64,000 nt of DNA from Primulina eburnea. Its lineage: Eukaryota > Streptophyta > Magnoliopsida > Lamiales > Gesneriaceae. Shown in pieces: positions 3,926 to 43,169 of the stretch (within the stretch, counting starts at the first letter, position 1; the number at the start of each line of letters is the position of its first letter). The translations under genes were made by a program, and so were the position numbers. Under the pieces are notes generated by a model. It did no database searches, had not been told where the DNA came from, and saw only the letters and a program-made list of their open reading frames with translations. The stretch covers positions 40,928,051 to 40,992,050 of the forward strand of contig NC_133108.1 of the NCBI RefSeq assembly GCF_022965805.1, read 5' to 3'.

Positions 3926-3934
3926 ATAAAACAA

Positions 3935-4075
3935 GGGAAAATTTTCAATAACTCCCCATATCCCTTCTAAACTTTATCCTTACTGCCTATCCCTCAAATT
4001 CTTTGTTTTAGCTCCCCAATATTTTAAAATTTCCAATAATACCCTTATCCTTTTATTTTGCAATTGATTTTTCTT
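3935..4075 (+). repeat. Left terminal inverted repeat, copy 1
   Basis: It begins GGGAAAATTTTC. Compared with the reverse complement of 12188-12325, it keeps matching blocks such as AAACTTTAT, CTTTGTT, AATACCC(C)TTAT and AATTGAT at nearly constant spacing. The same sequence with few changes starts copy 2 at 36904. Confidence 0.75.
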
Positions 4076-4334
4076 TTTAAAATAATGGTCCATCATGCTT
4101 CCGTAAAATAAATTAAATCTTTTACTTTTTTGACCAGAGTACCACCGGGTTATATCCACCGTATTTTACGAACTGCTCCTCACAGTCCAACCACGCGATC
4201 GCAACCGATGGTTACTAAGCAGATTCCTTCAGTAATACTTAGCACAGCTCTAATTCGTTTCCTACCTTAGAGCGTACAGCAAAAGATCAAATTTTGAAAA
4301 TAATACATGAGAGGGGCTAAGAGCAAAGATCTCT

Positions 4335-4340
4335 TTTATT
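4335..4340 (-). terminator. Poly(A) signal AATAAA of the caulimovirid-like unit
   Basis: AATAAA on the minus strand lies about 150 nt downstream of the expected transcription start below the TATA box at 4517-4524. A promoter followed at this distance by a poly(A) signal is what lets caulimovirids make a terminally redundant pregenomic RNA from a circle. The same pair is kept in copy 2. Confidence 0.55.
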
Positions 4341-4516
4341 CAAACACAAATATTTAAATATTACATAGTAACCTCCTGCAGAGGAGGAGAAACTTGTTTA
4401 GCTACTTATCGTAGCTGAACTCTTAACACTCATAAAACTTGAAAAGAAAATATTACAACCTTGTATGAAAGAAATGGAGAAAATATTTGATGATCTTCAC
4501 TTCCTTCTTCCGTCTT

Positions 4517-4524
4517 TATTTATA
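4517..4524 (-). promoter_or_regulatory. TATA box of the pregenomic-RNA-type promoter
   Basis: TATAAATA on the minus strand, downstream of the last viral ORF, in the position of the main caulimovirid promoter. Transcription would start near 4487 and read toward the left TIR. In this linear form it would run out into host DNA instead of continuing to the ORFs, unless the unit is circular or tandem. Confidence 0.6.
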
Positions 4525-4616
4525 GAAGGCTCCTTCGGATTTGAAACTCGGATTTCAAATCTTCATTAGCCTTTACAGCTTACTTGGGGACCATGTAGTG
4601 GTTGAAGGGTCCCTGT

Positions 4617-4817
4617 CTAGATTATTAATCTGGACATCAACTTCTCATCCTCCTTTATCTCTTTTAGATACCATTGACGATGAGTTTCCAGGATATCGGC
4701 AATAATTTCATCTTTCTTATACTCTTGGAAATGATTTACTAACCATTTAAGAGCTTCTGCCTCTTTCCTCTTGTATGTTAACCTTCTTTTCAAAACTTTC
4801 AAATATACTCGATACAT
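4617..4817 (-). CDS. Small ORF, 66 residues, conserved in both copies
   Basis: A Lys/Arg/Glu-rich 66-residue frame between the sixth-ORF-like gene and the promoter. Copy 2 has the same start, stop and length (37589-37789), with only a handful of amino-acid changes and no frameshift, although larger genes in that copy are broken. The protein looks helical (for example RKEAEALKWLVNHF). No family recognised. Its place, last before the promoter, suits a small accessory protein. Confidence 0.5.
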   Translation of the reverse strand: MYRVYLKVLKRRLTYKRKEAEALKWLVNHFQEYKKDEIIADILETHRQWYLKEIKEDEKLMSRLII

Positions 4818-5066
4818 TTTTAAGTTTTGATTCTGGTGTGTTAACTGGTTTTAATTCTGTCCTTATTTATGGATGAATTTTCGGGACCAGTTAATTTTTT
4901 ATTCATTGGATTCCTTTTAGATTGGTATCCAATGTTTGCTGAGTCATCCACCATTTGTTATTGGTGGTCCATTTGTCCTTTACCACTAATTAGTGGTTGT
5001 CTTGTTTCTACCACTCTCATGGTAGTGGTCCTGCTTTTGGTTAGTGGGTGAGTCACATGTCCATTA
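4818..5066. other. Non-coding spacer inside the caulimovirid-like unit
   Basis: A spacer between the 66-codon ORF and the 448-codon ORF. It contains repeated short TGGTGG and CCACTA motifs. No gene is called. Confidence 0.35.
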
Positions 5067-6413
5067 TCAATTTTGTCGAGGAATCTTAGGCTTTTTGTTT
5101 CCCCGAGGAAAATGTGCATGTGGTTTTTCCTCACTTGTCCTTGCTTCGGTAAAATGTTTCCGATCAGATCTCGGTTTGAAACCTTTACCGAACTCTGGTT
5201 CTTTCTGAATTTGGCATTCAGGACAGATGTTCTCCGACCATCTTCCTATGTGTGCCATATTGCAGAACTTTCGGCGAGTCTCTTTGCTTGCCGGTATCTT
5301 GCTGTTCCACAAAAGATTTCTTTTCTTTTCAAATAGATCTTCTGCAAAACTTGTTGTCTTTCCTGTCATGGTATTTAACAGGAATGATCCGTTCACTGAA
5401 TGATTGTAGAATTTGAACGGAAACTTGACTTTGTCCATCTCAGTGAGACAGACCCAAATACCCCAAGCTCTTCTGGTAGAAATATCATCTTCGGTAATTG
5501 AAGACACCACGGGTGTTTCTTCTGTCGGAGGGTCCTTGATGAATTTCTGGACATTTAAATCTGGCCTCCTTAGCTTGATGAAATGAAAGGCTTCATATGT
5601 GCCTTTCCCTGCTGGTTCTGGTGCTGCACCGAAAAAATACAACTCCAGAATATCCCCTCTGGACAAATAATCATTATTCGCCCAAGTTTCGTGAACAGCT
5701 TCCTGGATCCATTTTGGTAAACATGAAATCTCCGGAAAGCTAGGTGATGTAGTATAAACTGAGGCAAGGGCCCCAAATTCATACCATGCTTTAACCTCCT
5801 TTGGATATGAATTTTGTTTCATCCATACCCTTGGATATTTTCCTGAAACATCAACCCGATTGGTAGCTGGGTTAATGCCAATTCTTGTTTTTAATTTCTC
5901 CCAATTCTGTTGGTAAACCTGAAATAGAGAAATTGTTGCTTCGTTAGTACCAACCTTAGTTTTACCTTTGTCAATACAAGGCCTAAGGTTGATCTCTCCC
6001 TCTTCAATCCCCGAGGTGAAGGGTTGACTTGATGACTCAAGATAAGGATCAGGAGTCTCAATTTTTGTTTCAGCCGACTCATCTCGTGATGATCCCGACT
6101 TAACACTTGTGCAAGAGGTATTTGAATCCCCCGCTACAGGTATAGAGTCCTGTACTCGAAAACTCTCCATTTGAGAAACCAGTGGTCTCTCAATGCCCTG
6201 GAGGATAGGCCTTTGCGTTACAGACCATAACTGAGTATATGCCTGTAAACATCCTGTAATTCGATCAGAGACAATTCTCTTATCAGCTTGTTGTAGCCTT
6301 CCCGCAACTTCTGCGTTAACAGCTAACTTGTTAAACTTGGTTTGAAGCATTTCAAGGTGTTCCCTTAAATGCCTCTGCATCTTGATAATAGCATCTATGT
6401 CAATGCTGTCCAT
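5067..6413 (-). CDS. ORF-VI-position protein of the caulimovirid-like unit (transactivator candidate)
   Basis: 448 residues, directly after the polymerase gene; its ATG overlaps the polymerase stop by 14 bp. In caulimovirids this position holds the translational transactivator/inclusion-body protein, which allows reinitiation on the polycistronic RNA. Visible parts are an N-terminal amphipathic helix region (about 10-60), a Ser/Thr/Glu-rich linker (about 90-160), a conserved-looking core with WYEFGALASVYTT and the PKWIQEAVHETWANN region (about 205-265), and a C-terminal Cys/His cluster (CNMAH...ENICPEC, about 385-405) followed by a basic tail. I do not recognise the transactivator signature by eye, so the role is inferred from gene order. 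Copy 2 (38029-39375) is the same length and open. Confidence 0.6.
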   Translation of the reverse strand: MDSIDIDAIIKMQRHLREHLEMLQTKFNKLAVNAEVAGRLQQADKRIVSDRITGCLQAYTQLWSVTQRPILQGIERPLVSQMESFRVQDSIPVAGDSNTSCTSVKSGSSRDESAETKIETPDPYLESSSQPFTSGIEEGEINLRPCIDKGKTKVGTNEATISLFQVYQQNWEKLKTRIGINPATNRVDVSGKYPRVWMKQNSYPKEVKAWYEFGALASVYTTSPSFPEISCLPKWIQEAVHETWANNDYLSRGDILELYFFGAAPEPAGKGTYEAFHFIKLRRPDLNVQKFIKDPPTEETPVVSSITEDDISTRRAWGIWVCLTEMDKVKFPFKFYNHSVNGSFLLNTMTGKTTSFAEDLFEKKRNLLWNSKIPASKETRRKFCNMAHIGRWSENICPECQIQKEPEFGKGFKPRSDRKHFTEARTSEEKPHAHFPRGNKKPKIPRQN

Positions 6414-8436
6414 CTCTTGTTAAAAAATCTGCAAGAATATTTTCATGAGATTTAATTATCACAATATCAAAAATATAATTTTGACATAAAGCTTGCCATC
6501 GTAATAATCTAGCCTTCTCGGGTTTAGACTCAATTCTATTCCTTAAGAAAGCTTTAACTTGAGTGTTATCAACTTTCAAAGTGAATTTCTTTGCAAGTAA
6601 GAATAACGGCCATTTTTCAAAAGCCCTTTTTACTGCATAAAATTCCTTTTCGTTGATATGCCATCTTATGGCTTCTGCATCTGAGAATAACCCACTACAA
6701 TATCTGCATGGTTGTTCTCCATCTGGTGTGAGCTTTGTTAATACTGCAGCCCACCAATGATCACTGGCATCGGTATATAATACCAGATCATCCTCGTCTT
6801 GAGGAATAGCCATCTTTGGAAGATTTTTACAAACTTTCTTTAAATGGATAAGTCCTTTTGTGTGTTCGTCTGTCCATATAAATCTAGCATTTTTTTTCAA
6901 TAATGGACTGAACACCTTCCTGTGTTTTGCTAGGTTCTTAATAAACATCCCAGCAAAATTAACAACCCCTAAAAAACTTTGAAGTTGCTTCTTGTCTTTG
7001 AGATTTTCTGGAAAATTCTGCACCTTTTCTACTATGTGTTCTTGCAGAATTATTCCTGACTCATCGATTTCAATTCCGAGGAATTCAATCTTTCTTGTAG
7101 CAATGACTGCTTTCTTTTCAGATAAAACCAGTCCTTCTTTCTTGCAAACATTAGAGAAAATATCCAAATGTTTAACATGTTCATTCATATCTTTGGATGC
7201 TATTAAAACGTCGTCGATGTAAACAAACATAAATTTGAAATAATCTTTGAAAAGATTATCCATCTTTCTTTGAAATATCTGGGGTGAGTTAGCCAATCCC
7301 GTTGGTAATACTTCCCAAATATAATGTCCTTGAGGTGTGGAGAAAGCTGTGAATTTCTTGCTTCCTTCCTCCATCCGAATCTGATAAAATCCGGACTTAC
7401 AATCAAATTTATAGAATATCTTTGCATTGCGTATGCAACTGATCAGATGTTCTCTGCTTGGTATGAAATACCCATCAAACTCCAGAATTTTATTAATTTC
7501 TTGATAATTAATAACCAATCTGGGTTTTCCTCGTTTTATCTCACCATGATTTCTTACCAGAAAACCTGGACTGCTATATGGTGGCATACCTGCTTTGATC
7601 AACCCAAGGTCCAAATGTTCCTTGATTATAATCTGCATATCCCTCTGATCAATGATGTTCATTGGGATGGGTTTACAACGGACAAATTCATACTCTTTGC
7701 CTTCCTTGATCTTAAGGCAAGCCCTGAGTTGATTTCTGTCCCACCATGCCAAGGGATCTTCGTTATAATTTTCTTTGATCCTCTTCTTGACATCTTCCAG
7801 TGATACCTTAGATTCAAACTCTACTTCATTTGTATGTAGAGTTATCTTAAGGTATTCTATATCTTCTGGTTGGAGTTCCTTATCTGCTCTTAACTGGAGC
7901 ATTGTTTCTCCAAACCGTCTTGAATCTTTCATTTTTGGGTTCAGAAGTTTTCCTGAATCACCACGCTTGCTGCGAAACTGGATTGGCAATTTTCTGTAAA
8001 ATGCCTCCCTAAGTCTCTGGACTATGATTTTGTGATCACATGGTGTTGTGAACACTAATCTTCTAGTCTCATTTTCTTGTGTATAGGACTTGAACATTTG
8101 TAGGAAGTTATTTCCTAACAATATGTCAGCTCCTGTATCATGAAAATAAATTGGTGGTGTCTTTACCTTGTACCAAGGTGTTTGTCCAGCACCGCCAATC
8201 ATGATTTCAGTCATCTTAATCCCTTTACATAAGATTAAGATTATTCTGGAAAACTCTCTTCCAGCAATCTTGGGTAACTCTTCTTCCAAATTATTTGGAA
8301 AAACTCTTCGTTTTGCTGTACATATTCCAGCACCTGAATCAATATATGCAGCAAAATATTCTGCCTTATATTGTTCATACAACATTCCTACTGGAATGTA
8401 TATGGAGAATGGACTTGTGGTCATTGGATTTTCCAC
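6400..8436 (-). CDS. Caulimovirid-type protease-reverse transcriptase-RNase H
   Basis: 678 residues, close to the usual size of a free-standing caulimovirid polymerase. Order: aspartic protease with YIDSGAG near residue 32 and a second DTGADILLGN-type segment near 97-106; reverse transcriptase with FDCKSGFYQ, PQGHYIWEVLP and the catalytic YIDDVL box (about 405-410); connection; RNase H with LYTDASDHWWAAV near 555, an NEKEF segment and DNTQVKAFL. There is no integrase domain, which separates it from Ty3 elements. The start overlaps the movement-like gene by 16 bp. The frame is open throughout, so this copy may have been inserted recently or been kept by chance. The matching gene in copy 2 has a frameshift and a nonsense codon. 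Confidence 0.88.
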   Translation of the reverse strand: MENPMTTSPFSIYIPVGMLYEQYKAEYFAAYIDSGAGICTAKRRVFPNNLEEELPKIAGREFSRIILILCKGIKMTEIMIGGAGQTPWYKVKTPPIYFHDTGADILLGNNFLQMFKSYTQENETRRLVFTTPCDHKIIVQRLREAFYRKLPIQFRSKRGDSGKLLNPKMKDSRRFGETMLQLRADKELQPEDIEYLKITLHTNEVEFESKVSLEDVKKRIKENYNEDPLAWWDRNQLRACLKIKEGKEYEFVRCKPIPMNIIDQRDMQIIIKEHLDLGLIKAGMPPYSSPGFLVRNHGEIKRGKPRLVINYQEINKILEFDGYFIPSREHLISCIRNAKIFYKFDCKSGFYQIRMEEGSKKFTAFSTPQGHYIWEVLPTGLANSPQIFQRKMDNLFKDYFKFMFVYIDDVLIASKDMNEHVKHLDIFSNVCKKEGLVLSEKKAVIATRKIEFLGIEIDESGIILQEHIVEKVQNFPENLKDKKQLQSFLGVVNFAGMFIKNLAKHRKVFSPLLKKNARFIWTDEHTKGLIHLKKVCKNLPKMAIPQDEDDLVLYTDASDHWWAAVLTKLTPDGEQPCRYCSGLFSDAEAIRWHINEKEFYAVKRAFEKWPLFLLAKKFTLKVDNTQVKAFLRNRIESKPEKARLLRWQALCQNYIFDIVIIKSHENILADFLTRDGQH

Positions 8437-9656
8437 ATTTTATCTTCTGCCATAAACTCCATTCCATACTCTAGACGTTTCCAAGGTTTATGTTCCTCGA
8501 GAAACTCTAGTCCAAGAATCAGTCGATCTGATTCTTTTCCTGGAATTCTTTGAATATGAACCTCCAATTCCCCGATATTAATCAGTCCTTGGTAAGTTCC
8601 TATCATCGGTTGTTCCAAATAGTATACTGAATTACAAGGAAATTGATTCCTTTGCTTTGTAATGTCAAATACTATTTCTACCTCCTTCCACCCTTCTGGG
8701 CATCTAAGTTTTCCTATTGTAGAAAAACTTTTCAGCTCCTGTTGGGTTTCTATGACAGGCCTTTTATCCCATCTGTAACTTGTAATTCTGTCTCCTTGAA
8801 AAGATAGTCTTCTTGATTCCAATCTAAGACTTTGATTCCTCTGTAGAATTGGTTTGTCTTGGATCTGGATATCTGTTTCCTGTATGAAAGGAAACTCAAC
8901 TCTTTCTGGATAAATTGCTTGAGCAACTTTTCCGAATATTTCAGGGATTTCAATAAACTCGTTTCTAATAAACAATTCAGAGTGATGTGTATTAGATAGA
9001 GCATATGAAATTTGATAGGTAATAGAATATGGCCTATTACCTTCTTTCATCAGCCTTTTTTCCTTGAAGTTCTGATGCAATGTCAAGGCTCGGCTGAAAT
9101 CTCGATCTGCCAGGTTATAGGCTATCCTTGGATAGATTACCCCTACAATTTTTCCTGCACAGAGGTTTCCTGAGATTGTTCCCAGTACTGAATCTTGTAG
9201 ATTCCCCATTCTTTTATCGCAAATAGCAATATCGATAGGTGAATCTATCCCTTCTTTGAAAGTAGCCTTTATCATAATTTGGATTGCTCCGATATGAATC
9301 CAAGACATAGTCCTTGCTACTTCTATCTTGAGTTTTTGTAATTCCTCCTTAATTTCTTCGGAAGGAATTAACTGCATCTCCATTCTATTTCCTGTAAGTT
9401 CCATTGGGATTGCCATTTCCCTTCTAGAAACTTTATAGATTAGATGATGCTTTCTGTTTCTTAGGCCAAGACTTCCTAAGAACTTTTCTACCTGTCCTGC
9501 AGAGAAACCTTGGTATCTCTGTAAACTCGGATTTTCTCTCATGATTCTTTGAACCATGTTATGAGATATTGTTGTCTGGCTAAAAAATCTAGACAAATCT
9601 TCATGTGTTTCGTGTCGAAACACCTCGTCTTCAGTCAGATTCCGATTCTGTTCCAT
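8421..9656 (-). CDS. Movement-protein-like (30K superfamily) gene
   Basis: 411 residues. The region about 105-235 (SWIHIGAIQIMIKATF, IDIAICDKRM, LGTISGNL, GVIYPRIAYNLADRDF, YSITYQISYALSNTHHSE) has the beta-strand pattern and central Asp typical of the 30K movement-protein core of caulimovirids, which opens plasmodesmata. The C-terminal part (LILGLEFLEEHKPWKRL) is basic and aromatic. It overlaps the capsid gene by 26 bp upstream and the polymerase by 16 bp downstream, so it is translated from the same polycistronic RNA. Gene order capsid, movement, polymerase is the order I associate with the cavemovirus/solendovirus side of the family. In copy 2 most of this gene is deleted. Confidence 0.7.
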   Translation of the reverse strand: MEQNRNLTEDEVFRHETHEDLSRFFSQTTISHNMVQRIMRENPSLQRYQGFSAGQVEKFLGSLGLRNRKHHLIYKVSRREMAIPMELTGNRMEMQLIPSEEIKEELQKLKIEVARTMSWIHIGAIQIMIKATFKEGIDSPIDIAICDKRMGNLQDSVLGTISGNLCAGKIVGVIYPRIAYNLADRDFSRALTLHQNFKEKRLMKEGNRPYSITYQISYALSNTHHSELFIRNEFIEIPEIFGKVAQAIYPERVEFPFIQETDIQIQDKPILQRNQSLRLESRRLSFQGDRITSYRWDKRPVIETQQELKSFSTIGKLRCPEGWKEVEIVFDITKQRNQFPCNSVYYLEQPMIGTYQGLINIGELEVHIQRIPGKESDRLILGLEFLEEHKPWKRLEYGMEFMAEDKMWKIQ

Positions 9657-11053
9657 CAGATTCTTCCTGGCTTAAGACTTCCTCTTCTTCATATATACTC
9701 TCATCTGAGGCAATGTCCTCAAATCGGTATACTTGAATGAGATCTTGGTAATAAACTGCATCTTCTATATCCGGAGTAGGATCGAAGCGTTTAATACCTC
9801 TTTTCTCATTTTCTGGACAGTTGGTTGAGATATGACCTTTTGCTCCACATGTCCAACAATTACAATCTTTGAAACTTTCATTGGCTCGCGTATGAGCTCT
9901 TCTAAAAGTTTCTTTTGTAGGTGTTATTCCTGTGCTTCGAGATGAACTCGATGCCTGGGATGATATCCTACTTCTCGATGGTCCGCTTCTTCGTCCAGAT
10001 TTATAAGATCTGGCTTTCTGTCTAGACCATACGGTTCTTGGTTTCCAAGAACTCCTTCCACTTCGTGCATAAGGATGAGTCCTAAAACTTTTCCTTTTAT
10101 GCTTTTGTGGTTTACTTCCAATAATTGTTGGAAGATCATTTTCCTTACAACACAAAGGAGTTCTTTTGTTGATACCCCTTAGTCGTTTGTAATTCTTTTG
10201 TAATGCTGTCATGTGACACCATTCTGCCAATTTTCCTTTAAGGAAAGAGGCTCTTCTTGCCAATGTATCTGGATTACCAGGTACGTATTCCCTTATGAGC
10301 ATTTCTCTCCAAGAAAAGCTGCATAGCTATATCTTCTTCGACTCCTGAATTCCATCTATATTTGGTGAATAACATAATGTATTCATCTACCAAACATATA
10401 TCATGTAATTCAAGACTATACAGAGCTTGAGTATATTTTTTCTTCTTCTCTGTATCTTGACTATTGAAATAGTCTACCCCTATAAAGTGTGCTTTGAATA
10501 GGGTAGCCATCTTTCCAGCGATCTCACTAAGAGATTCCCCAACTAGGACTGACTCTTTCATGTCTGATGAAGTCATGTCCCAAGCAATTTTCACTGATCC
10601 CATAAGACTCATTTCCAAAAGTTTAATGAATCCTTCTTTGTTGAGATCAAGTGTTCCTGCCGCAATCCTCATAGCAGATGTCCAATCGTCTATGAGATCT
10701 TCTCTGTTTTTGAAGTCCAATACATCAAGGTTAAGCATTACCCCGTAAAGATGTATATGATCTAAAACAGTTTTCCCATAGGGTGTTTGGTGCAAAGGAA
10801 TTTGAGTTCTCCTTGCCCTTGTTCCCGCTGGGTGTGATCCTCCACCAGTATGGAAATCAGTCTGAGATTCTCTCATATTTACATTATGAGATCCCATACT
10901 TTCCCTTGGTGGTTCCTGAGAAGATGACCAGGTTATTGCAGGTGGTGTTTCACCTACTGCTGTATTCATCTTTAGATCTACTACTTTGAGATTTGCGAAA
11001 GATTCCGCAAGCTCTTGTAGATCCTCCAAACCAATCCTTTCTAAAGTTGTCAT
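9631..11053 (-). pseudogene. Capsid-like gene, frameshifted
   Basis: Two frames, 11053-10274 and 10302-9631, together form one capsid-like protein of about 480 residues. The first holds a folded-looking core (VLDFKNREDLIDDWTSAM region). The second holds an Arg/Ser-rich basic stretch, a zinc knuckle CWTCGAKGHISTNC (Cx2Cx4Hx4C) and an acidic C-terminus (DESIYEEEEVL): the usual caulimovirid capsid layout, used for nucleic-acid binding and packaging. Copy 2 reads through the junction region and is about 20 bp longer there, so copy 1 carries a small frameshifting deletion near 10303. The start codon touches the stop of the preceding 123-codon ORF. Confidence 0.75.
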
Positions 11054-11424
11054 CAGATTAATTTCTTTTCTGAGACAGACTTGATTAGATTGATCATCTT
11101 TTCTTCTTCAGTTAAAGGTTTTGACACCACTCTGGCCTTCCCTTGTTGATGTAACAAAGGTTCGGTACCAAAGGATGGTGGTAACCAACCTCCTGAAGTT
11201 CTTTTACTAGAACTTGGTTGTTGTTCTTGTTTCTGTATTCTTGTTTGAATATCCTTTAAGATCTCAAGAATTTCTTCTTGTTTCTCTAGGACCTTTTCAA
11301 CCCTTTGGGGTACATAATATAGCATATTGCCATAATTTTGTACCGTTTTCTGTATTTCTCTAAGATCCAGAGAGAGCTTAGAGGAGTCTGGTACTATCTC
11401 CAGAAATTTATTATTCTGAATCAT
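11053..11424 (-). CDS. Small ORF with coiled-coil (virion-associated-protein-like position)
   Basis: 123 residues. The middle (about 30-68: VEKVLEKQEEILEILKDIQ) has clear heptad spacing and is likely a coiled coil. It is followed by a Ser/Pro/basic stretch. Caulimovirids carry a small coiled-coil virion-associated protein upstream of the capsid gene; position and form agree, but sequence identity could not be tested. The stop overlaps the capsid start by one base. In copy 2 only a 90-bp inverted piece of this ORF remains. Confidence 0.5.
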   Translation of the reverse strand: MIQNNKFLEIVPDSSKLSLDLREIQKTVQNYGNMLYYVPQRVEKVLEKQEEILEILKDIQTRIQKQEQQPSSSKRTSGGWLPPSFGTEPLLHQQGKARVVSKPLTEEEKMINLIKSVSEKKLI

Positions 11425-11471
11425 AAATTTTTACCTGAGGGTGCTGTTGCTTCCCTTCGTAGTTCTTCTGT

Positions 11472-11669
11472 CTATACAGATCCATGGTTCTCTGAAGAAT
11501 TTCTTCTGAGTAGATTTTGAAGTATGTTTTTACAGTTCTTTAAACCTTGTAAACGCATACCTTTCGTTCTGAGTTCAGTGAAGCATGTACTTCGCTGTAA
11601 TTCTTGTTCTAATTGAATTATTTCCAGGGAAATAAGTTCAATTTCGAACTGGATGGTAGTCCCTGGCAT
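11472..11669 (-). CDS. Small ORF, 65 residues, second in the viral polycistron
   Basis: It begins 2 bp after the stop of the 97-codon ORF and ends 47 bp before the next ORF. Leu/Glu-rich N-terminal half (IELISLEIIQLEQELQ), probably helical, then a basic tail. No family recognised. It may be a real accessory ORF or the front part of a helical protein whose continuation has shifted frame. Confidence 0.35.
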   Translation of the reverse strand: MPGTTIQFEIELISLEIIQLEQELQRSTCFTELRTKGMRLQGLKNCKNILQNLLRRNSSENHGSV

Positions 11670-11671
11670 AT

Positions 11672-11965
11672 TTAACAGATCATTGAAGATCTGGTTTTTT
11701 CGGCCTGTAAGAGTCTACCTTTTGTGTATGCAAGGTTTTGCAAACACTGCTGTCTTTCATCAGGAGATAAATTTCCTGATTCCATGAGTTGTTTCAGATG
11801 CTTTATAGAACATCTGAATAGCTCTATTCGGAAACTAATGTTTCTGGAATAGAGATTGAAATGATTTCGGGGATTCCTAAATCCTTTCATTCCTTGATAC
11901 ATGACATATACCGTCATATGTCTGATGTTTCCATCAGATCTGTACCATAACTTTGTGGTCACCAT
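11672..11965 (-). CDS. Small ORF, 97 residues, first in the viral polycistron
   Basis: First open frame after the primer-binding site, about 190 bp downstream of it. It contains a helical segment (SIKHLKQLMESG, about 55-66) and DERQQCLQNLAYTKGRL. No family recognised. Its place fits the small leader-proximal ORFs of caulimovirids. It is absent from copy 2, where this part of the genome is deleted. Confidence 0.4.
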   Translation of the reverse strand: MVTTKLWYRSDGNIRHMTVYVMYQGMKGFRNPRNHFNLYSRNISFRIELFRCSIKHLKQLMESGNLSPDERQQCLQNLAYTKGRLLQAEKTRSSMIC

Positions 11966-12157
11966 TGGAACATACCTTTGTTCTCATATCTAACAATAGT
12001 TAGATAAACTTGTGTATATTCCAAAATATTGGAATAGTTCTTGTAAATTATTCTTCTCGAACTAAAGTTCGGATTCATAATTTTTTCGAAATTCTCCTTC
12101 TCATACATTTAGTTACTAGTAATAATAAAATTTTCGTGTTTGAAATAAATTAACCAT
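11966..12157 (-). other. Leader-type spacer between primer-binding site and first ORF
   Basis: AT-rich sequence between the primer-binding site and the first viral ORF; nothing else recognised. Confidence 0.4.
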
Positions 12158-12169
12158 GCTCTGATACCA
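12158..12169 (-). promoter_or_regulatory. Primer-binding site (initiator tRNA-Met type) of copy 1
   Basis: TGGTATCAGAGC on the minus strand is complementary to the 3' end of initiator tRNA-Met, the minus-strand primer used by caulimovirids and many plant LTR elements. It lies 156 bp inside the right end of the TIR-bounded unit and upstream of all ORFs. In copy 2 only part of the motif remains next to a deletion joint (about 42998-43008). Confidence 0.8.
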
Positions 12170-12187
12170 TTTTGTGAAAGCGCGGAG

Positions 12188-12325
12188 GATCAATTAAAAT
12201 CAAAATAAGAATAAGGGGTATTTTCGTCTTTTTTAAACTTATAGGGAGTTTGAACAAAGTTTTTTAGGTTTAGGGAGTTGTAATAAAGTTTGGTTGGGTA
12301 TTAGGGATTTATCTACAATTTACCC
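12188..12325 (-). repeat. Right terminal inverted repeat, copy 1
   Basis: Inverted relative to 3935-4075; reading inward it begins GGGTAAATTGTAG. The 9-bp duplicate ATAAAACAA follows at 12326-12334. Confidence 0.75.
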
Positions 12326-12520
12326 ATAAAACAATGTGTTTACTAATTATATTTTTGATTTGTTTCAAAAAAAAATATTTTTTAGAAAAATTATGGTATG
12401 TATTGCGGTACTTTTTTTTTTTTTTTTTTGAATAGGTATGTATTGCGTACTTATTGGGTACTGTAATAAATAAAAAAGTAAGATCACGTATTTTAGAAAA
12501 TTGTTCACTATTCGAAATTA

Positions 12521-25273: not shown

Positions 25274-25278
25274 ACAGG

Positions 25279-26563: not shown

Positions 26564-27882
26564 TGGTATAGTGACAGGTACTGATCTTTTATGATTAGAT
26601 TGCATATGTATTGATATATACGAATACATTCTTGATGTTTATCTTTGACTGAGTTGCATTGATAAATATTGTATCTGTTGGGTCTGTATTACTGTAGTAT
26701 TGATCTTTGTATCTTTTGGGGAAAGAATTTGATATCAGTGATATTCCGTGATATATTGTATACTGCGGTAAGTTGAAATGAGATTGAATTAGACTAGATT
26801 GTACTTGTATTGTCTGATGATGACTGCATAATGGATAGTGATATATCGAACAAGTACAGAGCTATGATAGATTCTTGCCAGGAGATGGTAAGATTTGGAC
26901 CTGAAATGGCCAAGGAATAAATGATATACGGTAATGATTCTTGATTTTGAATTCCTTGTTATCTGTATTGTTTATGATTCGATGATTATCGAAAGAAATG
27001 GAGTAATTCCTTATGTATTCAGTTGATGACTGAAGCTGAGCCTATCATGAATGGATTTACTAGTAGCAGGAAGTTTGCTATAGTCTTTCAGATGAGATTG
27101 CATGGTTGTCCTGGATTAGGGAGAGTGATTTCAGTCTTGATTTGATTACAGGTATTGGTTTCATTTTAGAATTTCTTATAGACTGATACTGATTGAATGG
27201 AGAGAATTGGGATATCAATTGAAAGACTTATTGCCTGAAGAGTTAGAGTTACATTTGATTATATGTTCTCTATAAAATACTTCAGTTCCGTTTATGGATT
27301 GATAAATCCTGTGTTCAGAAGTGTTCTGATGACTTTATGCTCGTTTTAGTTATGATTTTGATATATTCGCAGTTTATGATTGATTGAAACGGATAGTTGA
27401 CAATGGTATCGAATATTCTGGGAACTGAGATTGTTGTATACAGAATTGTTCGGATATGAATTTCGATTGTAACAGATTGTATTCAGAGTCTGTGATATCT
27501 GAAGATAGTATACTGATTGATTGTAGCACAGTGAGACTGTAATCAGTGGCTGAGAACGACATTGAATAATGCAGGATTTTTTTTGAAATGTCAGAAATTT
27601 CGTTCTATGCAGTTATTAGATCAGTATTGTGTATTGATATTCTGAATCTGATCTGACATGATTATCATTCTGAGTTCGTGTTTGATACCGATTGTTATGA
27701 ACCGTTGAGCTTATATTCAGTTCAGTCGAGTCAGAACTTGATTTTGATAGTCAGAGCCGAATACTAGGTAGGTATTTTTCTTTAATTTATATTAGTAACT
27801 GATTTGTTTGTGTCAGATATTCGAATTTAAAATGACAGGTATTGTCAGATGCACACAGTAGTAGATTTAGTACTATTCTGGT
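26564..27882 (+). pseudogene. Decayed pol region of the Ty3-type element
   Basis: No long frame. Around 27285-27375, in mixed frames, one can read traces of a Ty3 reverse transcriptase (FMD...VFRS-like, DDFMLVL and ILIYSQ, matching the region around the catalytic DD box). The rest is too altered to translate. It is much more decayed than gag, suggesting piecemeal loss. Confidence 0.45.
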
Positions 27883-36903: not shown

Positions 36904-37045
36904 GGGCAAATTTTCAATAACTCCCCATATCCCTTATAAACTTTATCCTTACTCCCTATTCCTCAAATTCTTTGTTTTAGCTCCCCAATATTTTAAACTT
37001 TCCAATAATACCCTTATCCATTTATTTTGCAATTGATTTTTTTTC
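36904..37045 (+). repeat. Left terminal inverted repeat, copy 2
   Basis: Near-identical to 3935-4075 of copy 1. Confidence 0.75.
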
Positions 37046-37305
37046 CTTTAAAATAATGGCACATCATGCTTCCGTAAAATAAATTAAATCTTTTACCTCT
37101 TTGACCGGAGTACCACCGGGTTATATCCACCGTATTTTACGAACTGCTCCTCACAGTCCAACCACGCGATCGCAACCGATGGTTACTAAGCAGATTCCTT
37201 CAGCAGTACTTAGCACAGCTCTAATTCGTTTCCTACATTAGAGCGTACAGCAAAAGATCAAATTTTGAAAATAATACATGAGAGGGGCTAAGAGCAAAGA
37301 TCTCT

Positions 37306-37311
37306 TTTATT
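37306..37311 (-). terminator. Poly(A) signal of copy 2
   Basis: AATAAA on the minus strand, at the same position relative to the TATA box as in copy 1. Confidence 0.5.
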
Positions 37312-37487
37312 CAAACACAAATATTTCTATATTACATAGTAACCTCCTGTAGAGGAGAAGAAACTTGTTTAGCTACTTATCGTAGCTGAACTCTTAACAC
37401 TCATAAAACTTGAAAAGAAAATATTACAACCTTGTATGAAAGAAATGGAGAAAATATTTGATGATCTTCACTTCCTTCTTCCTGCTT

Positions 37488-37495
37488 TATTTATA
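37488..37495 (-). promoter_or_regulatory. TATA box of the pregenomic-type promoter, copy 2
   Basis: TATAAATA on the minus strand, conserved with copy 1. Confidence 0.55.
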
Positions 37496-37588
37496 GAAGG
37501 CTTCTGCGGATTTGAACTTCGGATTTCAAATCTTCATTAGCCTTTACAGCTTGCATTGGGGACCATTTGGTGGTTGAGGGGTCCCTGT

Positions 37589-37789
37589 CTAGATTATCAA
37601 TCTTGACATCAACTTCTCATCCTCTTTTATCTCTCTCAGATACCATTGACGATGAGTTTCCAATATATCGACAGTAATTTCATCTCCTTTATATTCTCGG
37701 AAATGATTTACTAACCATTTAAGAGCTTCTGCTTCTTTTCTCTTGTATGTTAATCTTCTTTTCAAAACTTTCAAATATACCCTATACAT
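37589..37789 (-). CDS. Small ORF, 66 residues, copy 2
   Basis: Same start and stop as the ORF at 4617-4817, with a few conservative changes (for example FQEYKKD to FREYKGD). Open, although neighbouring viral genes in this copy are broken. Function unknown. Confidence 0.5.
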   Translation of the reverse strand: MYRVYLKVLKRRLTYKRKEAEALKWLVNHFREYKGDEITVDILETHRQWYLREIKEDEKLMSRLII

Positions 37790-38028
37790 TTTTAAGTTTT
37801 GATTCTGGTGTGTTAACTGGTTTCCATTCTGTCCTTATTTATAGATGAATTTTCGGGACCAGTTAATTTACTTTTTATTCATTGGATTCCTTTTGTGGTA
37901 TCCAATGTGTCATCCACCATCTATTATTGATGGTTCATTTTTCCTTTACCACTAATTAGTGGTTGTCTTGTTTCTGCCACTCACATGGTAGTTGTCCTGC
38001 TTTTGTAATGGAGGGTCACATGTCCCTT

Positions 38029-39375
38029 TTAATTTTGTCGAGGAATCTTCGGTTTTTTGTATCCTCGAGGAAAATGTGCATGTGGTCCTTCCTCCCTTGT
38101 GCTGGTGTCGGTAAAGTTTTTCCGATCTGATCTCGGTTTGAAACCTTTACCAAACTCCGGTTTCTTCTGGTCTTGGCATTCAAGGCAGATGTTTTCTGAC
38201 CAGCTTCCTATATGTGCCATGTTACAGAATTTTCGGCGAGTTTCTTTGCTTGCCGGCAGCTTGCTGTTCCACAAAAGATTTCTTTTCTTTTCAAATAGGT
38301 CTTCTGCGAAACTTGTTGTTTTTCCTGTCATGGTATTTAACAGGAATGATCCGTTCACTGAATGATTGTAGAATTTGAACGGAAACTTGACTTTGTCAAT
38401 CTCAGTGAGACAGACCCAAATACCCCAAGCTCTTCTAGTAGAAATGTCATCTTCAGTTATTGAAGACACCAGAGGTGTTTCTTCTGTTGGAGGGTCCTTG
38501 ATAAATTTCTGGACATTTGAATCTGGCCTCCTTAGCTTGATGAAATGAAAGGCTTCATGTGAACCTTTCCCTGTCGGTTCTGGTGCTGCACTAAAAAAAT
38601 AGAGCTCCAAAACATCTCCTCTGGACAAATAATCATTGTTTGCCCAAGTCTCATGAACAGCTTCCTGGATCCACTTTGGTAGACCTGAAATTTCTGGAAA
38701 GCTGGGTGATGTAGTATAAACTGAGGCAAGAGCCCCGAATTCATACCATGTCTTGACCTCCTTGGGATATGAATTTTGTTTCATCCATACCCTTGGATAT
38801 TTTCCTGAAACATCAACCCTATTTGTAGCTGGGTTAATGCCAATTCTTGTTTTCAACTTCTCCCAATTCTGTTGATAAACCTGAAATGGAGAAATTGTAA
38901 CTTCATTAGTACCAACCTTAGCTTTGCCTTTGTCAATACGAGGCCTAAGGTTGATCTCTCCCTCTTCAATCCCCGAGGTGAAGGGTTGACTTGAAGACTC
39001 AAGATAAGGATCAGGAGTCTCAATTTTTGTTTCAGTCGACTCATCTGGTGATGATCCCGACTTAACACTTGTGCAAGGGGTATTTGAATCCTCCGCTACA
39101 GGTATAGAGTCCTGTACTCGAAAACTCTCCATTTGGGAAACCAGTGGTCTCTCAATGCCTTGGAGGATAGGCCTTTGTGTTACAGACCATAACTGAGTAT
39201 ATGCCTGTAAACATCCTGTGATTCGATCAGAGACAATTCTCTTATCAGCTTGTTGTAGCCTTCCCGCAATTTCTGCGTTAACAGCTAACTTGTTAAACTC
39301 GGTCTGAAGCATTTCAAGGTGTTCCCTCAAATGCCTCTGCATCTTGATAATAACATCAATGTCAATGCTGTCCAT
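38029..39375 (-). CDS. ORF-VI-position protein, copy 2, open
   Basis: 448 residues, the same length as in copy 1, with scattered substitutions and no break. The WYEFGALASVYTT core and the C-terminal CNMAH...CLEC Cys cluster are kept (copy 1 has CPEC). It starts within the end of the polymerase gene as in copy 1. Putative transactivator by position only. Confidence 0.58.
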   Translation of the reverse strand: MDSIDIDVIIKMQRHLREHLEMLQTEFNKLAVNAEIAGRLQQADKRIVSDRITGCLQAYTQLWSVTQRPILQGIERPLVSQMESFRVQDSIPVAEDSNTPCTSVKSGSSPDESTETKIETPDPYLESSSQPFTSGIEEGEINLRPRIDKGKAKVGTNEVTISPFQVYQQNWEKLKTRIGINPATNRVDVSGKYPRVWMKQNSYPKEVKTWYEFGALASVYTTSPSFPEISGLPKWIQEAVHETWANNDYLSRGDVLELYFFSAAPEPTGKGSHEAFHFIKLRRPDSNVQKFIKDPPTEETPLVSSITEDDISTRRAWGIWVCLTEIDKVKFPFKFYNHSVNGSFLLNTMTGKTTSFAEDLFEKKRNLLWNSKLPASKETRRKFCNMAHIGSWSENICLECQDQKKPEFGKGFKPRSDRKNFTDTSTREEGPHAHFPRGYKKPKIPRQN

Positions 39376-41397
39376 CTCTTGTTAAAAAATCTGCAAGAAT
39401 ATTTTCATGAGATTTTATTATCATAATATCAAAAATATAATTTTGACATAAAGCTTGCCATCGTAATAATCTAGCTTTCTCCGGTTTAGACTCAATTCTA
39501 TTCTTCAAAAAAGCTTTTACTTGAGTGTTATCAACTTTCAAAGTGAATTTCTTTGCAAGTAAAAATAACGGCCATTTTTCAAAAGCCCTCTTTACTGCAT
39601 AAAATTCCTTTTCGTTGATATGTCATCTTATGGCTTCTGCATCTGAGAATAACCCACTACAATATCTGCATGGTTGTTCTCCATCTGGTGTGAGCTTTGT
39701 TAATACTGCAGCCCACCAATGATCACTGGCATCGGTATATAATACCAGATCATCCTCGTCTTGAGGAATAGTCATCTTTGGAAGATTTTTGCAAACCTTC
39801 TTTAAATGAATAAGTCCTTTTGTGTGTTCGTCTGTCCATATAAATCTAGTATCTTTTTTCAACAATGGACTGAACACCTTCCTGTGTTTTGCTAGGTTTT
39901 TAATAAACATCCCAGCAAAATTAACAACCCCTAAAAAACTTTGAAGTTGCTTCTTGTCTTTGAGATTCTCTGGAAAATTCTGCACCTTTTCCACTATGTG
40001 TTCTTGCAGAATTATTCCTGACTCATCGATTTCTATTCCGAGGAATTCAATCTTTCTTGTAGCAATGACTGCTTTCTTTTCAGATAAAACCAGTCCTTCT
40101 TTCTTGCAAACATTAGAGAAAATCTCCAAATGTTTAACATGTTCATTCATATCTTTGGATGCTATTAAAACATCGTCGATGTAAACAAACATGAACTTAA
40201 AATAATCTTTGAAAAGATTATCCATTTTTCTTTGAAATATCTGGGGTGAGTTAGCCAATCCCATTGGTAATACTTCCCAAATATAATGTCCTTGAGGTGT
40301 GGAGAAAGCTGTGAATTTCTTGCTTTCTTCCTGCATCCTGATTTGATAGAATCCGGACTTACAGTCAAATTTAGAGAATATCTTGGCATTGCGAATGCAA
40401 CTAATCAAGTGTTCTCTACTAGGTATAAAATACCCATCAAACTCCAGAATTTTATTAATTTCTTGATAATTAATAACCAATCTGGGTTTTCTCGTTTGAT
40501 CTCACCATGATTTCTTACCAGAAAACCTGGACTGCTATATGGTGATATACCTGCTTTGATTAAACCAAGGTCCAAATGTTCCTTGATTATAATCTGCATA
40601 TCCTTTTGATCAATGATGTTCAATGAGATAGGTTTACAACGGACAAATTCATACTCTTTGCCTTCCTTGATCTTAAGGCAAGCTCTGAGTTGATTTTTGT
40701 CCCACCATGCCAAGGGATCTTCATTGTAATTTTCTTTGATCCTTTTCTTGACATCTTCTAATGATACCTTGGATTCGAACTCTACTTCATTTGTTTGTAG
40801 AGTTATCTTAAGGCATTCTATATCATCTGGTTGGAGTTCTTTATCTGCTCTCAACTGGAGCATTGTTTCTCCAAACCGTCTTGAATCCTTCATTTTTGGG
40901 TTCAGAAGTTTTCCTGAATCACCACGCTTGCTGCGAAACTGGATTGGCAATTTTCTGTAAAATGCCTCCCTAAGTCTCTGGACTATGATTTTGTGAGCAC
41001 ATGGTGTTGTGAACACTAATCTTCTAGTCTCATTCTCTTGTGTATAGGACTTGAACATTTGTAGGAAATTATTTCCTAACAATATGTCAGCTCCTGTATC
41101 ATGAAAATAAATTGGTGGTGTCTTTACCTTGTACCAAGGTGTTTGTCCAGCACCGCCAATCATGATTTCAGTCATCTTAATCCCTTTACATAAGATTAAG
41201 ATTCTTCTGGAAAAATCTCTTCCAGCAATCTTGGGTAACTCTTCTTCCAAATTATTTGGAAAAACTCCTCGTTTTGCTGTACATATTCCAGCACCTGAAT
41301 CAATATATGCAGCAAAGTATTCTGCCTTATATTGTTCATACAACATTCCTACTGGAATGTATATGGAGAATGGACTTGTGATCATTGGATTTTCCAC
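39362..41397 (-). pseudogene. Protease-RT-RNase H, copy 2, broken
   Basis: Same gene as 6400-8436. The protease and front of the RT are open from 41397 to about 40490, where a one-base loss shifts the frame. The RT with FDCKSGFYQ and YIDDVL and the front of RNase H continue to 39620, where a Trp codon has become a stop. The remaining RNase H end is still readable to 39362. No integrase. Confidence 0.85.
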
Positions 41398-41665
41398 ATT
41401 TTATCTTCTGCCATAAACTCCATTCCATACTCTAGACGTTTCCAAGGTTTATGTTCCTCGAGAAACTCTAGTCCAAGAATCAGTCGATCTGATTCTTTTC
41501 CTAGAATTCCTTGAATATGAACCTCCAATTCTCCGATATTAATCAGTCCTTGGTAAGTTCCTATCATTGGTTGTTCCAAATAGTATATTGAATTACAAGG
41601 AAATCGATTCCTTTGCCTTGTAATGTCAAATACTATTTCTACCTCTTTCCACCCTTCTGGGCATC
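41382..41665 (-). pseudogene. Movement-like gene remnant, copy 2
   Basis: Only the last about 95 codons remain (PMIGTYQGLINIGELEVHIQ onward). The upstream part is cut at about 41661-41666, where it is fused to the end of the capsid gene. Confidence 0.75.
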
Positions 41666-42905
41666 TTCTATATCCGGAGTAGGATCGAAGCGTTTAATAC
41701 CTCTTTTCTCATTTTCTGGACAGTTGGTCGAGATATGACCTCTTGCTCCACATGTCCAGCAATTACAATCCTTGAAACTTTCATTGGTTCGCGTATGAGC
41801 TCTTCTGAAAGTTTTCTTTGTAGGTGTTCTTCCTGTGCTTCGAGATGAATTCGATGCTTGGGATGATATCCTACTCCTTGATGGTCCGCTTCTTTGTCCA
41901 GATTTATAAGATCTGGCTTTCTGTCTAGACCATACGGTTCTTGGTTTCCAAGAATTTCTTCCACTTCGTGCATAAGGATGAGTCCTAAAACTTTTCCTTT
42001 TATGCTTCTGTGGTTTACTTCCAATAATTGTTGGAAGATCATTTTCCTTACAACACAAAGGAGTTCTTTTGTTGATACCCCTTAAGCGTTTGTAATTCTT
42101 TTGTAATGCTGCCATGTGACACCATTCTGCCAGTTTTCCTTTAAGGAAAGAGGCTCTTCTTGCCAACGTATCTGGATTGCCAGGTACATATTCCCTTATG
42201 AGCATTTCTCTCCAAGGGCTTGGCATTTTTGCGAAGAAAAGCTGCATAGCTATATCTTCTTCAACTCCTGAAATCCATCTATATTTAGTGAATAACATAA
42301 TGTATTCATCCACTAAACATATGTCATGTAATTCAAGACTATACAAAGCTTGAGTATATTTCTTCTTCTCTGTATCTTGACTATTAAAATAGTCTACCCC
42401 TATAAAATGTGCTTTAAATAGGGTAGCCATTTTCCCAGCGATCTCACTAAGAGATTCTCCGGCTAGGATTGACTCCTTCATATCTAATGAAGTCATGTCC
42501 CAAACAATTTTTACCGATCCCATAAGACTCATTTCCAAAAGTTTAATGAATCCTTCTTTGTTGAGATCGAGTGTTCATGCTGCAATTCTCATAGCAGATG
42601 TCCAATCATCTATGAGATCTTCTCTGTTTTTGAAGTCTAATACATCAAGGTTAAGCATAACCCCGTAAGGATATATAGGATCTAAAACAGTTTTCCCGTA
42701 GGGTGTTTGGTGCAAAGGAATCTGGTTTCTCCTTGCCCTTGTCCCTGCTGGGTGTGATCCTCCACCAGTATGGAAATCAGATTGAGATTCTCTCATGTTT
42801 TCATCTTGAGATCACACACTTTCTCTTGGTGGTGTTTGAGAGGATGACCAGGTTATAGCAGGTGGGGTTTCCCCTACTGCTCTGTTCATCTTCAGATCTA
42901 CTACT
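41666..42905 (-). pseudogene. Capsid-like gene, copy 2, broken
   Basis: It retains most of the capsid frame with the zinc knuckle CWTCGARGHISTNC but has lost its acidic C-terminus through the deletion. A Gly codon has become a stop near 42575, and the first about 24 codons are lost at the 5' deletion. Unlike copy 1, it has no frameshift in the middle of the gene. Confidence 0.75.
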
Positions 42906-42906
42906 T

Positions 42907-42996
42907 AAAGGATATTCAAACAAGAATTCAGAAACTAGAACAACAACCAAGTTCTAGTAGACGAACTTCAGGAGGTTGGTTACCACCATCTTTTGG
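42907..42996 (+). repeat. 90-bp inverted piece of the small coiled-coil ORF in copy 2
   Basis: This stretch is the reverse complement of copy 1 positions about 11167-11258, while everything around it is in the same orientation as copy 1. Deletions lie on both sides. Confidence 0.8.
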
Positions 42997-43021
42997 TGAT
43001 ACCATTTTTGAAAGCGCGGAG

Positions 43022-43159
43022 GATCAATTAAAATCAAAACAAGAATAAGGGGTATATTTGTCTTTTTTAAACTTATAGGGAGTTGGAACAAAGTTTTTTA
43101 GGTTTAGAGAGTTGAAATAAAGTTTGGTTGGGTAGTAGGGATTTATCTACAATTTACCC
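43022..43159 (-). repeat. Right terminal inverted repeat, copy 2
   Basis: Near-identical to 12188-12325; followed by TAGAAAATA. Confidence 0.75.
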
Positions 43160-43169
43160 TAGAAAATAT

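What the first reader, a model, noticed from the sequence alone, without database searches (positions are those of the whole stretch)
3935..12325. Caulimovirid-like genome with terminal inverted repeats and 9-bp target duplications
Seen: two copies (3935-12325 and 36904-43159) share the same outer ends. The ends are inverted to each other over about 135 bp, and each copy has its own perfect 9-bp direct repeat (ATAAAACAA; TAGAAAATA). Known: caulimovirids lack integrase and normally integrate by end joining without TSDs; TIRs with 9-bp TSDs are the hallmark of Mutator-like transposition. Inference: a complete pararetroviral genome has become cargo of, or has evolved into, a DNA transposon, a hybrid mobile element I do not know to have been described. 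It would explain how this viral lineage multiplied in the genome without its own integrase.
Basis: partly seen in the sequence, partly recalled or inferred. Interest (0 to 1): 0.95.

Follow-up and report, generated by a model that had tools for sequence, protein, structure and literature searches.

The report
Plant virus wearing transposon ends
In a plant genome (probably Primulina eburnea), a virus family that has no integration enzyme sits in many copies, each sampled one with the inverted ends and usually the 9-base target duplication of a cut-and-paste transposon, which suggests that it borrows a host transposase to insert its DNA.

Summary
Copies A and B have ~155-bp inverted ends, their own perfect 9-bp target duplications and unrelated flanks. 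The interior is a caulimovirid (coat-related frames, movement protein, protease-RT-RNase H, transactivator, tRNA-Met primer site) without a recognisable integrase or transposase. In the whole genome (812 Mb, probably Primulina eburnea) 20 of 29 end-matched elements have perfect 9-bp duplications (0 of 812 cross-pairs). Of 11 copies sampled by movement-protein rank, 10 have 9-bp and one a 10-bp duplication at paired ends. Two paralogous empty sites carry one target copy. All 56 inspected ends adjoin viral DNA. The copies are not passive cargo: shared pol variants are mostly synonymous (145:47), singletons are not (117:216), and end classes are exchanged near the primer site, as reverse transcription would do. 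Best reading: a pararetrovirus whose leader carries Mutator-type ends, copied by its own RT and inserted by a host transposase in trans. Shown: ends, duplications, empty sites, selection, end exchange. Inferred: which transposase, an episomal form, the RNA phase of the ends. My searches of an open-access library listed no such case.

The parts
3926..3934 (.). Copy A, left 9-bp target duplication ATAAAACAA
3935..4088 (+). Copy A, left terminal inverted repeat, begins GGGAAAATT; 7 differences in 154 columns to copy B
4089..5066 (-). Viral intergenic region at the 3' end of the viral map; holds the presumed promoter and poly(A) signal
4335..4340 (-). AATAAA, candidate poly(A) signal, about 150 nt past the presumed RNA start (read by eye)
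   Evidence: print-out
4517..4524 (-). TATAAATA, candidate TATA box of the genomic RNA; transcription would run out through the left inverted repeat (read by eye)
   Evidence: print-out
5067..6413 (-). ORF6, 448 aa, transactivator/viroplasmin-like
   Evidence: 13 BFVD matches at E<=0.001: 11 named as caulimovirid transactivator, inclusion-body or ORF VI proteins, 2 unnamed
6400..8436 (-). ORF5, 678 aa, aspartic protease - reverse transcriptase - RNase H; no integrase domain
8421..9656 (-). ORF4, 411 aa, 30K-type movement protein (PF01107)
9631..10302 (-). ORF3, 223 aa, with CCHC zinc knuckle (just under Pfam cut-off); coat-type
10274..11053 (-). ORF2, 259 aa; two longer relatives (334 and 388 aa) carry the caulimovirus coat domain PF22909 (one just under cut-off), so the coat-related region is split over two frames here
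11053..11424 (-). ORF1, 123 aa, no confident family
12158..12169 (-). tRNA-Met primer-binding site TGGTATCAGAGC, directly inside the right inverted repeat
12170..12325 (-). Copy A, right terminal inverted repeat, outermost bases GGGTAAATTG read inward
12326..12334 (.). Copy A, right 9-bp target duplication ATAAAACAA
36895..36903 (.). Copy B, left 9-bp target duplication TAGAAAATA
36904..43159 (.). Copy B: same ends, internally deleted and rearranged (36903-41666 matches A 3934-8705; 41661-42906 matches A 9758-10986; 42904-42997 is A 11167-11260 inverted; 42997-43159 matches A 12162-12325)
43160..43168 (.). Copy B, right 9-bp target duplication TAGAAAATA

Best explanation
This is a lineage of caulimovirids (reverse-transcribing plant viruses without an integrase) whose genome carries a pair of Mutator-type transposon ends in the leader, between the RNA start and the tRNA primer site. 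When the viral DNA is circular the two ends would lie back to back and the RNA of that stretch would fold into the leader hairpin (inferred). The genome is copied by its own reverse transcriptase, which keeps the viral genes under selection and shuffles the ends near the primer site (selection and shuffling shown; the RT as agent inferred). A host DDE transposase, most likely one of the many Mutator-like (MULE) transposases of this genome, recognises the ends in trans and inserts one genome-length unit with a 9-bp target duplication (duplication and empty sites shown; the enzyme inferred). The insertions then decay as dead copies (shown for pol). Whether integrated copies also excise and start new rounds is not known.
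For: Insertion: 20 of 29 end-matched elements have perfect 9-bp duplications, 4 have one mismatch, one has 10 bp; 0 of 812 cross-pairs match. Of 11 copies chosen by rank from the 101 best places of the movement-protein search, 10 have a perfect 9-bp and one a 10-bp duplication at paired ends. Two paralogous empty sites run through the junction with one target copy. Ends belong to the virus: 20 of 20, 16 of 16, 12 of 12 and 8 of 8 inspected ends run into viral DNA. Replicating source: A versus B dN/dS 0.12 (bootstrap 0.09-0.16, 1635 codons); among 22 pol copies the median over those of the 231 pairs with dS above 0.03 is 0.11; biallelic sites shared by copies syn 145 / nonsyn 47 / stop 4, singletons 117 / 216 / 12 (Fisher p 1.8e-19). 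Ends are inherited with the virus: left-end versus pol distances r 0.64, p 0.0004; right end r 0.36, p 0.0012 (20 elements). Exchange near the primer site: in 27 of 29 loci the stretch past the primer site matches A over a larger fraction than the outer right end, and copy C16 shares its right end at 98% with L177 while its ORF1 is 98% like A and L177's is 90%. Transposase supply: 150 MULE-domain places scored of 865 candidates, many in long open frames.
Against: No host MULE carrying the same ends was found; only 30 MULE loci with 1.5-kb flanks could be compared. No head-to-head junction of the two ends, as a circle or tandem array would give, was found for end class T4, the only class tested, with an exact pattern (89 left ends of that class), so an episomal form has no direct support. 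4 of 29 elements have no duplication. Left and right ends sometimes trace to different sources (C9c, C10c). A versus B also shows mosaic steps away from the primer site. No transcript, extrachromosomal DNA or particle data were available.
Confidence: 0.7

Rival explanations
1. Passive cargo: one viral genome was trapped once inside a MULE and all copies since are DNA-level transpositions, the viral genes being passengers (a Pack-MULE).
For: Same ends, 9-bp duplications and unit length are all that cargo would need.
Against: Passenger genes should drift at dN/dS near 1; here it is 0.12 between A and B and 0.11 median among 22 pol copies, with the excess of amino-acid changes in singletons. Near-identical interiors carry different end classes, and left and right ends of one element are no more alike than those of different elements of class T1 (74.6% v 74.4%).
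Confidence: 0.07
2. Same hybrid, but the integrated element is the main replicating form: it excises like a DNA transposon, the excised DNA serves as template for the RT cycle, and new DNA reinserts, without particles or infection.
For: Very high copy number with little divergence (101 scored of 2188 candidates, movement protein at 97-100% identity); no tandem junction of the one class tested.
Against: The movement protein, needed only for spread between cells (recalled), is without in-frame stop in 85 of the 101 best-scoring places (biased to intact ones), which speaks for continued infection of plants. The single integrated unit has its presumed promoter at the wrong end to make a full genomic RNA (read by eye).
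Confidence: 0.12
3. The virus encodes its own, unrecognised transposase or recombinase.
For: ORF1 (123 aa) has no confident family; one of its three weak PHROG matches is an integrase family (phrog_95, E 0.04, 13.5 bits, chance level). ORF3 has a weak Pfam match to a restriction endonuclease family (E 0.094).
Against: The other frames are accounted for: AP-RT-RH, movement protein, CCHC and coat-related frames, transactivator. ORF1 is too short for a known DDE transposase (recalled). No transposase match in Pfam for the six frames at E<=0.1.
Confidence: 0.04
4. Ordinary endogenous caulimovirid fragments put in by double-strand-break repair or by LTR-retrotransposon integrase; ends and duplications are coincidence.
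For: This is how the literature explains caulimovirid integration (PMC10377300 passages; PMC13308828 passages).
Against: The same outer ends in nearly all copies inspected, 9-bp duplications (0 of 812 by chance pairing), empty sites without loss. LTR integrases make shorter duplications and act on TG..CA ends (recalled).
Confidence: 0.02

Closest known systems
Endogenous caulimovirids (endogenous pararetroviruses, e.g. florendoviruses)
   Same: Gene content, tRNA-Met primer site, high copy number in a plant genome, no integrase (PMC10377300 and PMC4241990 passages).
   Different: Those are described as fragmented, rearranged filler DNA with no coordinated integration; here units have fixed ends, inverted repeats and 9-bp duplications.
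Mutator-like elements (MULEs) and Pack-MULEs
   Same: Long inverted ends and 9-bp target duplications (maize Mu: ~215-bp TIRs and 9-bp duplications, abstract start of PMC2774946 in a listing). That many plant MULE ends begin with GGG is recalled.
   Different: No transposase gene; the interior is a selected viral genome, not a neutral gene fragment; the ends inspected were not seen without virus.
Teratorn (piggyBac-herpesvirus fusion of fish)
   Same: A virus without integrase living in a genome as a DNA transposon (PMC10175614 passages).
   Different: Teratorn is a 180-kb DNA virus fused with piggyBac, transposase included; here the virus is an 8-kb reverse-transcribing one with only the ends, and the ends are exchanged between lineages.
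LTR retrotransposons (Metaviridae)
   Same: Related RT-RNase H and tRNA-Met primer site.
   Different: No LTRs, no integrase, inverted instead of direct termini, 9-bp duplication.

Membership tests
Caulimoviridae | Aspartic protease - RT - RNase H polyprotein | tested here: met
   Pfam PF02160, PF00078, PF17917, PF17919 over cut-off
Caulimoviridae | 30K-type movement protein | tested here: met
   PF01107, E 1.9e-31
Caulimoviridae | Coat protein with CCHC knuckle | tested here: inconclusive
   CCHC just below cut-off in ORF3 (20.1 v 20.8 bits); coat domain seen in two relatives of ORF2 (P0208 at 26.9 bits against a cut-off of 27; P0209 at 34.1), not in ORF2 itself
Caulimoviridae | tRNA-Met primer-binding site | tested here: met
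   12158-12169 (-), exact
Caulimoviridae | Transactivator/viroplasmin | tested here: met
   Foldseek BFVD best E 1.8e-9; 11 of 13 matches at E<=0.001 named as such or as inclusion-body/ORF VI proteins, 2 unnamed; model pLDDT only 63. No Pfam match
Caulimoviridae | No integrase | tested here: met
   no rve or other integrase domain in six frames (E<=0.1); one chance-level PHROG integrase match of ORF1 (E 0.04)
Caulimoviridae | Episomal circular DNA in particles | not testable with these tools
   genome assembly only
Mutator-like element | Long terminal inverted repeats | tested here: met
Mutator-like element | 9-bp target duplication | tested here: met
   20 of 29; 10 of 11 MP-sampled
Mutator-like element | MURA-type transposase in the element (autonomous) | tested here: not met
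   none in the six frames of copy A
Mutator-like element | Ends shared with a transposase-bearing MULE | tested here: inconclusive
Pack-MULE | Captured sequence between MULE ends, drifting as passenger | tested here: not met
   dN/dS 0.12 and 0.11
LTR retrotransposon | Direct terminal repeats and integrase | tested here: not met
   no direct repeat joining the two ends of A at E<=1e-5; no integrase
Teratorn-type fusion | Virus carrying its own transposase | tested here: not met

The most novel reading that the evidence does not exclude
A reverse-transcribing virus lineage has turned the hairpin of its RNA leader into a pair of DNA-transposon ends, so that one stretch serves both the RNA cycle and insertion, and it uses host Mutator-type transposases as a borrowed integrase. 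Reverse transcription swaps whole end pairs between viral lineages, which lets the same virus change the transposase it depends on.
Probability: 0.5. Interest if true: 0.97.

Novelty: categorically new. Interest (0 to 1): 0.93.

Why it matters
How caulimovirids enter plant genomes and become abundant without an integrase is an open question: the review PMC10377300 calls the mechanism speculative and PMC10175614 says that the mechanism of integration and propagation is unknown. Here is a lineage in which insertion is precise, can be read from the sequence and can be tested with a TIR-bounded marker. It would add a second route, besides Teratorn, by which a virus becomes a transposon, and the first that I know of in which the virus brings only the ends and the host supplies the enzyme. 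It also blurs the border between retroelements and DNA transposons: RT would make the copies and a DDE transposase would place them.

Tried and rejected
Considered and rejected: segmental duplication of A and B (flanks unrelated, own duplications); head-to-head viral arrays (0 matches to the exact T4 junction pattern; other classes not tested); MITEs or MULEs with the same ends (none among the ends inspected); ORF6 as a transposase (its best matches are transactivators; PDB fold search gave nothing at E<=0.001; PDB sequence search only one match at E 0.38); a partner end for the TIR-like GGGAAAATTGAGGTAAAATCCC at 43172 beside B (no convincing inverted partner).

Led nowhere: viral-contig scans with pol and with a pol alignment (no relative); plasmid collection; paper search for the end sequence (none). 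Nine paper searches (one search was aimed at Primulina and caulimovirid genome papers) listed no report of a virus with MULE ends; the library is open-access only, only the top rows of each were listed, and PMC10741241 (plant transposon annotation), which came up in several, was not opened. PMC10377300, PMC4241990, PMC13308828 and PMC10175614 were read as passages found by terms, not whole; PMC2774946 was seen as an abstract start in a listing.

Rows set aside: of 40 left-end and 41 right-end matches (both capped), 27 further pairs plus A and B were formed by hand from coordinates and strand; 11 left and 12 right rows were not used. C13b has two possible right ends; the outer one was used in the count (the inner one lies in an AT repeat). 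In one search, 19 of 28 rows were perfect, including that inner one; one search is the final count. The terminal bases are partly lost in C15, C6a and C7b. Pol codons were used only where they aligned without gaps, and sites only where at least 12 of 22 copies had a codon. r92 and r22 were missed by the script and read by eye; r42 needed its left end, fetched later at a place given. The rank sample comes from the 101 best-scoring of 2188 candidates, so worn copies are not represented.


Full report
Check of the observation. The two copies carry the ends and duplications stated. The inverted ends are far beyond chance (A: 143 of 193 columns, score 117, shuffle maximum 64; B: 115 of 157, score 101, shuffle maximum 73). 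Copy B matches A at 92-95% over its main shared stretches but has lost about 1 kb and carries an inverted 94-bp piece. Flanks are unrelated.

What lies between the ends. On the minus strand of A: ORF1 (123 aa, unknown), ORF2 (259 aa, related to two longer proteins with the caulimovirus coat domain), ORF3 (223 aa, CCHC), ORF4 movement protein, ORF5 protease-RT-RNase H, ORF6 transactivator-like. A tRNA-Met primer site lies directly inside the right inverted repeat. A TATA-like and an AATAAA motif lie near the left end (read by eye), so a genomic RNA would start at the left, run through the left repeat and, on a circle, through the right repeat to the primer site. In one integrated unit that RNA would run out of the element. 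The unit therefore looks like one genome length opened in the leader, between RNA start and primer site. No integrase or transposase was recognised; the only hint is a chance-level PHROG match of ORF1 to an integrase family (E 0.04).

Host. Contig C5 of the genome is 41,820,699 bases long, the same as the contig of a Primulina eburnea protein found (P0207). The host is therefore probably Primulina eburnea (inference). Related proteins occur in Sesamum, Salvia, Perilla, Phtheirospermum, Phlomoides, Henckelia and Dorcoceras.

Genome-wide ends. A search with the left end gave 40 matches and with the right end 41, both limited by the 40 candidates scored. All 20 further left ends first fetched start at the same base and run on into viral leader. 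Pairing by hand gave 27 further elements, 10 of them 8.2-8.43 kb long by coordinates. With A and B, 20 of 29 have perfect 9-bp duplications, 4 have one mismatch (C15, C6b, C9b, C2), one has 10 bp (C10c) and 4 have none (C9a, C6a, C13b, C7b); 0 of 812 cross-pairs of left and right flanks match, 11 with one mismatch. Only C10c matches beyond 9 bp. The perfect duplications are 93% A+T against 79% for the flanks.

Copies chosen without the ends. The movement protein matches 101 scored places of 2188 candidates, all at 97-100% identity; 85 of 101 have no in-frame stop (the best-scoring ones, so biased to intact). Ranks 2, 6, 12, 22, 32, 42, 52, 62, 72, 82 and 92 were taken. All 11 have paired ends; 10 have a perfect 9-bp duplication and one (rank 22) 10 bp; ranks 2, 6, 12, 32, 52, 62, 72 and 82 by script, 22, 42 and 92 by eye. 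Of four further copies chosen through an end pattern, C2g, C4g and C3g are perfect and C1g, in an AT repeat, has one mismatch.

Empty sites. Flanks of three elements were joined without the second target copy and searched. For rank 82 and rank 72 a paralogous place runs through the junction at 81% and 78% identity with a single target copy, exact for rank 82 and with one mismatch for rank 72. For rank 62 two places matched the left flank only. The two insertions with an empty site duplicated their target without loss at the junction.

The ends belong to the virus. Besides the 20 left ends, 16 of 16, 12 of 12 and 8 of 8 further ends that match by end sequence or pattern adjoin viral leader, intergenic DNA or ORF1 (L141 and L142 are distant relatives at about 70-79%). 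The pattern GGGTAAATTNNNNATAAATCCC with at most one mismatch occurs 169 times against 3 for the reversed control (about 100 places listed). No non-viral carrier of such ends was seen among those inspected. The genome has a large supply of MULE transposases (150 scored of 865 candidates), but their surroundings could be compared only in 30 loci with 1.5-kb flanks, without a match.

Not passive cargo. A and B differ with dN/dS 0.12 (dS 0.197, dN 0.024, 1635 codons of five frames, bootstrap 0.09-0.16); the short movement-protein stretch gives 0.40 on 94 codons, and ORF1 could not be compared. Among 22 pol copies the median over those of 231 pairs with dS above 0.03 is 0.11 (range 0.03-0.54). At biallelic sites, variants shared by two or more copies are 145 synonymous, 47 nonsynonymous and 4 stop, and singletons 117, 216 and 12 (Fisher p 1.8e-19 for the synonymous/nonsynonymous table). 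The source evolved under selection and the insertions decay. All but two of these copies were paired with both ends (C6c and C13c with the left end only), so the ends were part of the source.

Ends travel with the virus and are exchanged. In 20 elements, left-end distances follow pol distances (Mantel r 0.64, p 0.0004), right-end less so (r 0.36, p 0.0012); left and right ends of one element are no more alike (74.6%) than those of different elements (74.4%). In some copies one end is near A and the other far (C9c, C10c). Several end classes exist (my labels T1-T7). T1 and T4 are related; T5 and T7 are hardly alike to others and T6 weakly. Left and right of one class match each other (mean score 37 on the diagonal, 19 off; 8 of 5040 permutations as good, the observed one included; some related classes match as well as own pairs), while the movement protein inside the rank-sampled copies is 97-99% identical to A. 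In 27 of 29 loci the stretch past the primer site matches A over a larger fraction than the outer end (exceptions L084 and L145); in 10 of the 29 the outer end has no match to A at all although the stretch past the primer site matches at 92.6-97.7% (L155 and L176 are one place). C16 shares its T5 end at 98% with L177, yet its ORF1 is 98% like A and that of L177 90%. A versus B shows a step near the presumed RNA start, 2-4.5% differences on the leader side and 7-10.5% from 4501 to 6000, falling back to 2-5% from 6001 on, so it is one of several mosaic steps. Steps at the primer site and at the RNA start are what template switching of the first minus-strand product would give (established caulimovirid replication, recalled). 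This is the best sign that the ends pass through the RNA phase, but it is an inference; faster change of the ends alone would explain part of it, not C16.

Mechanism. I take it that the circular viral DNA holds the two ends back to back at the top of the leader hairpin, that a host Mutator-type transposase cuts there and inserts the linear unit, and that RT replication keeps the source alive. The inner ~40 bp next to the primer site are shared between most classes and look like the base of a viral hairpin (by eye; not folded); the outer ~115 bp are class-specific. Against: no head-to-head junction was found for T4 (0 exact matches; 89 left ends of that class), and no partner MULE was identified.

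Comparison with the known. Caulimovirid integration is explained in print by break repair or LTR-retrotransposon help and is called speculative (PMC10377300, passages; [quoted passage not shown] The closest idea is Teratorn, a herpesvirus fused with piggyBac (PMC10175614), which carries its own transposase. Nine searches listed nothing like it, in an open-access library only.

Verdict. A real, genome-wide hybrid of pararetrovirus and cut-and-paste transposon ends, with the enzyme and the episomal form still to be shown.

Noticed in passing
window 43172-43193: A further TIR-like GGGAAAATTGAGGTAAAATCCC starts three bases past the right duplication of copy B; no convincing inverted partner was found, so B may sit beside a remnant of another element.
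   Followed up: partly
L155, L139, L143, L181: Some copies carry an extra ~210-bp piece at the primer site, in L155 with two primer-site-like motifs 210 bp apart: a duplicated primer region whose role is unknown.
   Followed up: no
window 48792-54015: A copia-type retrotransposon with 223-bp ends at 99.1% identity and gag-pol frames (767 and 261 aa with copia domains), apparently young.
   Followed up: no
window 936-1844, 14164-15663, 17755-19248, 29197-30300: A cluster of UDP-glycosyltransferase genes and fragments in tandem and inverted arrangement.
   Followed up: no
window 24705-25274 and 27882-28451: A 570-bp repeat at 99.6% identity within the glycosyltransferase cluster.
   Followed up: no
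L144 (C6:10763106-10763800): A TIR-bearing end whose viral intergenic DNA is inverted and rearranged, somewhat as in the internal inversion of copy B.
   Followed up: no
protein search hits (120 listed of 551): Sesamum genomes hold many caulimovirid pol proteins, often with a movement-protein domain, annotated as 'enzymatic polyprotein' at 44-74% identity; whether they have such ends could not be read here.
   Followed up: no
G000:C18:3699562-3699859: Two T5-class right ends face each other 98 bases apart, probably two neighbouring insertions.
   Followed up: no
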